This document shows positions 22,596 through 52,956 of a stretch of 64,000 bases of DNA, in pieces. The notes beneath the pieces were generated by a model. The model had not been told where the DNA came from. It worked only from the letters and a program-made list of their open reading frames with translations, and ran no database searches. This stretch comes from Azospirillum cavernae. GTDB lineage: Bacteria > Pseudomonadota > Alphaproteobacteria > Azospirillales > Azospirillaceae. A program made the translations under genes and the position numbers. The stretch is from NCBI RefSeq assembly GCF_003590795.1, contig NZ_QYUL01000001.1, forward strand, positions 1,257,001-1,321,000, given 5' to 3'. Position 1 is the first letter of the stretch, and each line of letters opens with the position of its first letter.

Positions 22596-23594
22596 GTGGA
22601 AACTCTGGAAAAACTGCCCCTGTCCATCGAAATCCGCAAACTGGGGCCGGGTCCCGGCGACGTGGTGGTGGTCGCCCCGCAGGACGACGCCCCGCAGCCG
22701 CTGACGCGGTCCGACGCGATCGCCGCCATCGTCGACCGCCATTTGCTGCGCGAGGGAGCCATCCTGTTTCGGGGGTTCGACATCCTTGGGGAACAGCCGT
22801 TCCAGGCCTTCGCGTCGGCGTTCGGCGATCCGCTGCTGGATTACCGCTTCGGCTCCACCCCACGCACCGACCTTGGCGACGGGGTTTACACCAGCACCGA
22901 ATACCCGGCCCATCAGGTCATCCCCCTGCACAACGAGCAGTCCTACACGCGGTCCTGGCCGCTGCGCTTGTGGTTCCATTGCGTGATCCCAGCGGAGGAG
23001 GGCGGCGAGACGCCCATCGCCGACAGCCGCATCGTGTATGACCGGCTGGAACCGGCCCTGCGGCGGCGCTTCGCCGAAAAGCGCCTGTGCTACAGCCGCA
23101 ATTACGGCGGCGGGTTGGATGTTCCCTGGCAAAAGGTCTTCGGCACGGACGACCGCGCCACCGTCGAGGGCTATTGCCGGGACAACGGCATCACTTGCGA
23201 GTGGAAGCCGGACGGCGATTTGCGGACCCGTCAGATCGTGCAGGCGGTGGCCGACCACCCGATCACCGGCGAGACCGTCTGGTTCAACCAGGCCCACCTG
23301 TTCCACGTCTCCAACCTCGACCCGGCGGTGCAAGAGGCGCTGCTGAGCATCGCGGGCGATTCCTGGAATTTGCCGCGCAACGTCTTTTACGGCGACGGCT
23401 CCCCGCTGGAGGACAGCGCGCTTCAGGAAATTCGCGGCGTTCTCGACGCCTGCACCATCCGCTTTCCGTGGCGGGCGGGGGACGTGCTGATGCTGGACAA
23501 CATGCTGTTCGCCCACGCCCGTTCGACCTTCCGGGGCAAGCGCAAGGTGCTGGTGGCGATGGCCCAACCCTGCTCGGAAGGAGCGGCCTCGTGA
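22596..23594 (+). CDS. Stand-alone TauD/SyrP-like Fe(II)/2-oxoglutarate dioxygenase, putative aspartyl beta-hydroxylase
   Basis: 332 residues. The iron ligands are visible as LHNEQSY (His112, Glu114, an HxE pair as in clavaminate-synthase-like members) and the distal FAHAR (His307) with the following basic segment for 2-oxoglutarate. In siderophore clusters such stand-alone enzymes hydroxylate the beta-carbon of carrier-bound aspartate, giving an iron-binding alpha-hydroxycarboxylate. This is the first gene of the NRPS operon, and its stop overlaps the GTG of the first synthetase (GTGA). GTG 22596 was chosen because GGAGG lies 5 bases upstream. Starts further upstream would run into the right Fur-type box. 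The three Asp modules downstream are the obvious targets. Hydroxylation of a different residue cannot be excluded by sequence alone. Confidence 0.88.
   Translation: METLEKLPLSIEIRKLGPGPGDVVVVAPQDDAPQPLTRSDAIAAIVDRHLLREGAILFRGFDILGEQPFQAFASAFGDPLLDYRFGSTPRTDLGDGVYTSTEYPAHQVIPLHNEQSYTRSWPLRLWFHCVIPAEEGGETPIADSRIVYDRLEPALRRRFAEKRLCYSRNYGGGLDVPWQKVFGTDDRATVEGYCRDNGITCEWKPDGDLRTRQIVQAVADHPITGETVWFNQAHLFHVSNLDPAVQEALLSIAGDSWNLPRNVFYGDGSPLEDSALQEIRGVLDACTIRFPWRAGDVLMLDNMLFAHARSTFRGKRKVLVAMAQPCSEGAAS

Positions 23595-52956: not shown

What the first reader, a model, noticed from the sequence alone, without database searches (positions are those of the whole stretch)
23591..52956. Every Asp module, and no other, carries tandem carrier domains: A(Asp)-T-T-E three times
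Seven modules have ten carrier domains. The three extra ones are all in the Asp modules, placed A-T-T-E (serines 1012/1090 in NRPS 1, 1053/1133 in NRPS 2, 2576/2667 in NRPS 3). The Ser module with an epimerase has a single T, so the doubling does not go with epimerisation but with Asp. With one stand-alone hydroxylase in the operon, one T may present Asp for beta-hydroxylation while the other serves epimerisation and condensation, or the pair may raise flux. The pairs differ in sequence from one another, so they are not a recent copy of one cassette.
Basis: partly seen in the sequence, partly recalled or inferred. Interest (0 to 1): 0.9.

Follow-up and report, generated by a model that had tools for sequence, protein, structure and literature searches.

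The report
Double carrier domains mark hydroxylated-aspartate modules
A bacterial siderophore assembly line carries two back-to-back carrier domains in each of its three aspartate-loading modules and nowhere else; the same doubling recurs, in every peptide-synthetase case checked, in aspartate modules whose cluster has a free-standing aspartate hydroxylase, so it is a real but not indispensable signature of how that amino acid is modified on the line.

Summary
Seven modules hold ten carrier (T) domains. The three extra T's are in the three Asp modules (DLTK-type codes), each A-T-T-E; the Ser-E module has one T.

The pairing is conserved in orthologous Azospirillum lines and recurs elsewhere. 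In clusters with relatives of this hydroxylase, 35 of 92 Asp modules are T-T against 0 of 171 others. Thirty-four pairs are GGDSI+GGDSI; one Moritella pair is GADSI. Thirteen precede a C domain with no E, so doubling does not need epimerisation. All 13 Asp modules after a fused interface-hydroxylase have one GGHSL/GGNSL T. Searching 299 Pseudomonadaceae genomes for T-T alone gave 15 pairs, all Asp modules beside a stand-alone hydroxylase.

T-T is not required: pyoverdine-type hydroxylase clusters use one GGDSI T, and two lines seem to have lost T1. It is mostly inherited in one A(Asp) lineage, with a few later duplications.

Best reading: two equivalent GGDSI carriers presenting Asp to one trans-acting hydroxylase, raising the chance of hydroxylation before the residue moves on. 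Strict division of labour is unsupported but not excluded. The GGDSI/hydroxylase link was already published; the tandem link was not found in papers held here.

The parts
22506..23594 (+). stand-alone TauD-family hydroxylase (P0004), predicted aspartyl beta-hydroxylase of the TbH_Asp type; relatives usually align from about residue 30-40, so the true start may lie further in
   Evidence: Pfam TauD 5.7e-50; in the stand-alone clade, separate from the fused interface hydroxylases; one copy in the genome
23591..31471 (+). NRPS1: C-A(Asp)-T-T-E-C-A(Gly)-T; GTGA overlap with the hydroxylase gene
25001..26452 (+). A(Asp) of NRPS1, code DLTKVGHVG
26498..26728 (+). T1 of NRPS1, GGDSI, Ser1012
   Evidence: carrier-like four-helix pattern in the AlphaFold model, residues 509-579 of A2
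26735..26962 (+). T2 of NRPS1, GGDSI, Ser1090
   Evidence: carrier-like four-helix pattern, residues 589-658 of A2
26966..28270 (+). E domain of NRPS1, HHLAVDGVSW and EHGRD motifs
31475..39529 (+). NRPS2: C-A(Asp)-T-T-E-C-A(Ser)-T
33026..34483 (+). A(Asp) of NRPS2, code DLTKIGHVG
34505..34738 (+). T1 of NRPS2, GGDSI, Ser1053
34754..34978 (+). T2 of NRPS2, GGDSI, Ser1133
34964..36244 (+). E domain of NRPS2
39526..52956 (+). NRPS3: C-A(Ser)-T-E-C-A(Asp)-T-T-E-C-A(Gly)-T-TE
   Evidence: TE is the C-terminal alpha/beta-hydrolase-like part, matched with a model made from this same protein
42616..42846 (+). single T of the Ser-E module of NRPS3, GGDSI (internal control: E without doubling)
45628..47076 (+). 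A(Asp) of NRPS3, code DLTKIGHIG
47128..47358 (+). T1 of NRPS3 Asp module, GGDSI, Ser2576
47401..47628 (+). T2 of NRPS3 Asp module, GGDSI, Ser2667
47626..48912 (+). E domain of the NRPS3 Asp module
22184..22465 (-). probable MbtH-like protein (93 aa ORF)
   Evidence: assigned by eye from the sequence, no family search run; MbtH genes sit beside the hydroxylase in L164-L166
19844..22030 (-). TonB-dependent receptor
   Evidence: Pfam TonB_dep_Rec_b-barrel and Plug
17893..19398 (-). PepSY_TM protein, possible siderophore-iron reductase
   Evidence: Pfam PepSY_TM; function inferred
16250..18499 (-). ABC transporter ORF (probable siderophore exporter); true start is probably downstream of the ORF start because it overlaps the PepSY gene
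   Evidence: Pfam ABC_tran and ABC_membrane

Best explanation
The window encodes a peptide-siderophore assembly line predicted to build an acyl-(OH)Asp-Gly-(OH)Asp-Ser-Ser-(OH)Asp-Gly chain, with an E domain in each Asp module and in the second Ser module. Each Asp module has one A domain and two carriers of the GGDSI type. Proposed working: the A domain loads L-Asp on both carriers; the single stand-alone hydroxylase visits carrier-bound Asp and installs the beta-OH; two equivalent carriers per module double the docking and waiting sites, so that Asp is more likely to be hydroxylated before E and the next C domain take it; T2, next to E, is the carrier that can do every step and hands on the residue. 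Shown by sequence: ten T domains, both carrier serines kept, the link of T-T with Asp modules in clusters with a stand-alone hydroxylase, its independence from E, and its inheritance with repeated duplication and loss. Inferred: loading of both carriers, hydroxylation on them, and the gain in efficiency.
For: T-T in 35/92 Asp modules and 0/171 other modules of hydroxylase clusters; among modules with a GGDSI T, 35/75 Asp against 0/26 non-Asp. Carrier serine kept in all 18 aligned pairs; T1 and T2 57-68% identical to the B510 ortholog, near the single T's. T-T-C without E in 13 cases, with T2 still GGDSI and not T_C-like elsewhere in the domain. Asp modules following a fused interface-hydroxylase: one GGHSL/GGNSL T in 13/13. 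Reverse search of 299 genomes by T-T alone: 15/15 pairs in Asp modules beside a stand-alone hydroxylase (G1192 by identity of coordinates with G1046). T1 and T2 are sisters in unrelated Asp modules (G615 96*, Moritella 100*, Sessilibacter 94), fitting separate duplications in this setting. Single GGDSI T's of P. gingeri and Microbulbifer group with T2, so T2 alone appears able to serve such a module. Published rule: stand-alone hydroxylase plus a GGDSI carrier correlates with 3R hydroxylation (PMC10391617).
Against: Most of the association is common descent: 32 T-T and 4 single-T rows form one group of 36 in the A(Asp) tree, so counts are not independent, and gene conversion could also make T1 and T2 look like sisters. 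Many clusters of this hydroxylase family manage with one GGDSI T. No chemistry was available here for any T-T cluster, so hydroxylation of each Asp is unproven. No sequence feature directly shows a gain in flux. About a third of the non-Asp modules have an unassigned or fragmentary A domain.
Confidence: 0.55

Rival explanations
1. Division of labour: one carrier (probably T1) presents Asp to the hydroxylase, the other (T2) serves epimerisation and condensation, with transfer or selective loading between them.
For: T1 and T2 keep positional identity: T1 nearest to other T1 in 29/35, T2 to T2 in 27/35. The apparently lost carrier in P. gingeri and Microbulbifer is T1, the E-distal one.
Against: Both carriers are GGDSI, even before C with no E; no consistent T1/T2 difference in carrier-type scores (T1 > T2 in 16/35, p = 0.054, the trend being for T2 to resemble single Asp carriers more). 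Single-T clusters of the same hydroxylase family exist. A recent pair in Moritella is 95% identical.
Confidence: 0.2
2. Inherited quirk: T-T arose once in an A(Asp) lineage that travels with this hydroxylase subclade and is tolerated without much function.
For: One group of 36 rows holds 32 T-T modules; T-T clusters concentrate in one hydroxylase subclade (17 of 23 rows); losses occur.
Against: The carrier serine is kept in every aligned pair; T1 and T2 are both conserved across Azospirillum; duplications that look separate (G615, Sessilibacter, Moritella) all fall in Asp modules; spacing between the two serines is exactly 72 residues in 19 of 36 pairs.
Confidence: 0.2
3. General flux booster unrelated to hydroxylation, as tandem ACPs are in some PKS systems.
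For: Tandem carriers are known elsewhere (KorC, PMC12283262; tandem carriers after a KS-DH-KR stretch in G616).
Against: If flux alone mattered, doubling should also appear in Gly, Ser, Dab or Orn modules of the same lines: 0/171; it is also absent from Asp modules after fused interface-hydroxylases.
Confidence: 0.05

Closest known systems
TbH_Asp stand-alone aspartyl beta-hydroxylases and their GGDSI carriers (Reitz et al. 2019 PNAS, known here through PMC10391617, PMC11574851 and PMC7100376)
   Same: stand-alone TauD enzyme next to the first NRPS gene; Asp carriers of the GGDSI type; MbtH-like gene and TonB receptor nearby
   Different: each Asp carrier is doubled; one enzyme would serve three Asp modules. 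Whether Reitz et al. already describe the doubling could not be checked (paper not held)
IbH_Asp interface-domain hydroxylases (fused TauD)
   Same: same enzyme superfamily and product type
   Different: fused behind a C-like domain; the Asp module that follows has one GGHSL/GGNSL carrier (13/13); separate clade
Cupriavidus and Pseudomonas clusters with both hydroxylase types (loci L026, L004, L006, L031)
   Same: stand-alone hydroxylase followed by C-A(Asp)-T-T
   Different: T-T followed by C, no E; a second Asp module with one T behind a fused hydroxylase. Likeness to the cupriachelin line is recalled, not tested
Pyoverdine-type lines with an aspartate hydroxylase (e.g. P. syringae 1448a, PMC3207962)
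   Same: same hydroxylase family, A(Asp)-T-E
   Different: single GGDSI carrier
Tandem carriers in koranimine KorC and in PKS modules
   Same: two adjacent carriers
   Different: not Asp modules; KorC carriers are loaded in trans (PMC12283262)

Membership tests
TbH_Asp stand-alone aspartyl beta-hydroxylase | TauD/TfdA fold protein encoded as a separate gene in an NRPS siderophore cluster | tested here: met
   Pfam TauD 5.7e-50, separate ORF before NRPS1, TonB receptor nearby
TbH_Asp stand-alone aspartyl beta-hydroxylase | groups with stand-alone enzymes, not with fused interface hydroxylases | tested here: met
   fused enzymes form one clade of 17 (100*), the window protein lies outside it among stand-alone enzymes; no characterised reference enzyme was placed in the tree
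TbH_Asp stand-alone aspartyl beta-hydroxylase | partner Asp module with a GGDSI (T_E) carrier | tested here: met
   all six carriers of the three Asp modules are GGDSI
TbH_Asp stand-alone aspartyl beta-hydroxylase | hydroxylates carrier-bound Asp to the 3R product | not testable with these tools
   needs biochemistry or product isolation
IbH_Asp interface-type hydroxylase | hydroxylase fused to a C-like interface domain before the Asp module | tested here: not met
   no fused hydroxylase seen in NRPS1-3
Epimerisation-competent Asp module | E domain with HHxxxDxxSW and a conserved HGR-type motif after the carrier | tested here: met
   all three Asp E domains carry both motifs; activity not testable
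Tandem carrier (T-T) module | two complete carrier domains each with the attachment serine | tested here: met
   two four-helix carrier-like units in the model (relative placement unreliable, pTM 0.46)

The most novel reading that the evidence does not exclude
The GGDSI-GGDSI pair is a dedicated on-line hydroxylation station: the stand-alone hydroxylase recognises the tandem as a unit, and the pair is selected, gained and regained only where a trans-acting enzyme must modify carrier-bound Asp before E or C can act. This would make T-T a predictor of which Asp in a siderophore is hydroxylated by the stand-alone enzyme.
Probability: 0.25. Interest if true: 0.75.

Novelty: new variant of a known kind. 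Interest (0 to 1): 0.55.

Why it matters
Why some NRPS modules carry two carrier domains is mostly unexplained. Here the doubling follows one substrate and one kind of trans-acting tailoring enzyme, with natural controls: similar lines with and without E, Asp modules served by the fused hydroxylase with one carrier, lines that seem to have lost T1, and lines that seem to have duplicated it again. That makes the question testable with one small set of serine mutants. As an annotation rule it would help predict which Asp residues of a siderophore are hydroxylated and by which enzyme. The line itself predicts a siderophore with three hydroxyaspartates and no hydroxamate in view, shared in outline by Azospirillum, Moritella and a Vibrio harveyi plasmid.

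Tried and rejected
Chance or annotation artefact: rejected. Doubling due to epimerisation: rejected (Ser-E single T; 13 T-T-C cases). Doubling as a recent copy of one cassette in the window: rejected. Search for T_C-like character in T2 of T-T-C modules: none. Search for specialisation of T1 or T2 towards hydroxylation: inconclusive. Remnant of a second T in the 108-residue gap of L007: only an Ala/Pro-rich linker seen. Literature: no held paper was found that links tandem carriers with Asp hydroxylases; Reitz 2019 is not held, so prior description is not excluded. The structure model was not used for domain arrangement (pTM 0.46).

Full report
What is there. Three NRPS genes follow a stand-alone TauD-type hydroxylase gene (22506-23594), the first starting in a GTGA overlap. 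Domain models and motifs give C-A(Asp)-T-T-E-C-A(Gly)-T, C-A(Asp)-T-T-E-C-A(Ser)-T and C-A(Ser)-T-E-C-A(Asp)-T-T-E-C-A(Gly)-T-TE. A codes are Asp, Gly, Asp, Ser, Ser, Asp, Gly. On the other strand nearby are a TonB-dependent receptor, a PepSY_TM protein and an ABC transporter, and a short ORF that looks like MbtH by eye, which marks a siderophore locus.

Conservation. The orthologous line in G659, which matches Azospirillum sp. B510 plasmid pAB510a in length and content, has the same seven modules with T-T in all three Asp modules and one T in Ser-E. Azospirillum sp. 412522 has T-T in the three Asp modules that its broken contigs show. T1 and T2 are 57-68% identical between window and B510, single T's 68-74%. 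An AlphaFold model of A-T-T-E shows two four-helix carrier-like units, about ten residues apart; its domain arrangement is unreliable (pTM 0.46).

Survey of hydroxylase clusters. Eighty loci were fetched by the hydroxylase alone and fifteen clusters extended. Of 92 Asp modules, 35 are T-T: 22 before E, 13 before C with no E; 34 pairs are GGDSI+GGDSI and one Moritella pair reads GADSI. Of 171 other modules (about a third with unassigned substrate or fragmentary A) none is T-T. Asp modules directly behind a fused interface-hydroxylase have one T of the GGHSL/GGNSL type in 13 of 13. Asp modules with one GGDSI T number 40, mostly in Pseudomonas pyoverdine-type clusters. This fits the published rule that the stand-alone hydroxylase goes with a GGDSI carrier (PMC10391617) and adds that tandem carriers in these clusters are of that type and sit in Asp modules.

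Reverse test. A profile of the T-T pair was run on genomes without regard to hydroxylase. In 299 Pseudomonadaceae genomes (the family of G458, named from its likeness to Pseudomonas clusters) hits fell into two classes: 15 full-length pairs (152-222 bits) in nine genomes, and single T's (92-101 bits). All 15 are Asp modules beside a stand-alone hydroxylase (G1192 has the same coordinates as G1046, which was annotated). In 289 genomes of the window's own class only the window's three were full-length; a weaker partial hit in G162 is a GGDSL pair in a non-Asp setting of the same layout as G616. In the phylum-wide set of 399 the only other kind was G616, whose pair follows KS, DH and KR domains, a PKS-type tandem carrier. 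Limits: the profile comes from Asp pairs, and only part of the candidates in each genome was scored, so T-T pairs of other carrier types may be missed.

History. In the A(Asp) tree 32 T-T and 4 single-T rows form a group of 36 (99*), with at least seven changes of state overall. Fused hydroxylases are one clade; stand-alone enzymes of T-T clusters concentrate in one subclade with the window's (96*, 17 of 23 rows). So most of the association is shared ancestry. But T1 and T2 of G615 (96*), of the last Asp module of Moritella (100*, 95% identical) and of Sessilibacter (94) are each other's closest relatives, which fits separate duplications, or gene conversion, again in Asp modules. The single T's of P. 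gingeri and Microbulbifer group with T2, which points to loss of T1. The T tree rests on 69 columns and is weakly resolved.

How it may work. Since T-T precedes C without E in 13 cases and T2 there is still not a T_C-type carrier, doubling does not separate hydroxylation from epimerisation, and T2 is not simply the ordinary condensation carrier. T1 and T2 show no consistent difference. Because T2 alone is found in related lines, I favour two equivalent carriers that raise the chance of hydroxylation by one shared enzyme before the residue is consumed. This last step is inference; the inherited-quirk and division-of-labour readings remain open.

Product. Predicted acyl-(OH)Asp-Gly-(OH)Asp-Ser-Ser-(OH)Asp-Gly with E domains in the three Asp modules and the second Ser module. 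The N-acyl group is inferred from the starter position of the first C domain. Three hydroxyaspartates would supply six iron ligands. The literature cited in PMC11574851 expects D-threo residues when the stand-alone hydroxylase and E are combined, while that paper itself reports an L-erythro exception.

Noticed in passing
G1030 (L129) 12227-15340; L165 25561-28740: In Moritella and on a Vibrio harveyi plasmid the similar line has, as its third module, C-T-T-E with no A domain: about 30 residues lie between C and T1, in one open frame. Asp would have to be loaded in trans, and the tandem carriers are kept even there.
   Followed up: partly
G1030 (L129) 5504-8785; L165 18826-22158: In the same two lines the first Asp module is T-T followed by C with no E, while the Azospirillum counterpart has E.
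   Followed up: partly
window 22506-52956: The line predicts a siderophore whose iron ligands would be three hydroxyaspartates, with no ornithine hydroxylase recognised among the window genes that were scanned.
   Followed up: no
window 29696-31156 and 50359-51831; 37679-39193 and 41119-42618: The two Gly A domains are near-copies of each other, as are the two Ser A domains, unlike the three Asp A domains (seen in the translations).
   Followed up: no
L011/G1034, L034/G1039: Microbulbifer and P. gingeri lines of the Asp-Dab-X-X-Asp-Gly-Asp type have one T in the first Asp-E module where their relatives have two; that T groups with T2.
   Followed up: yes
tandem pairs in all loci: The distance between the two carrier serines is exactly 72 residues in 19 of 36 pairs and 72-102 overall; the window pairs are at 78, 80 and 91.
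   Followed up: no
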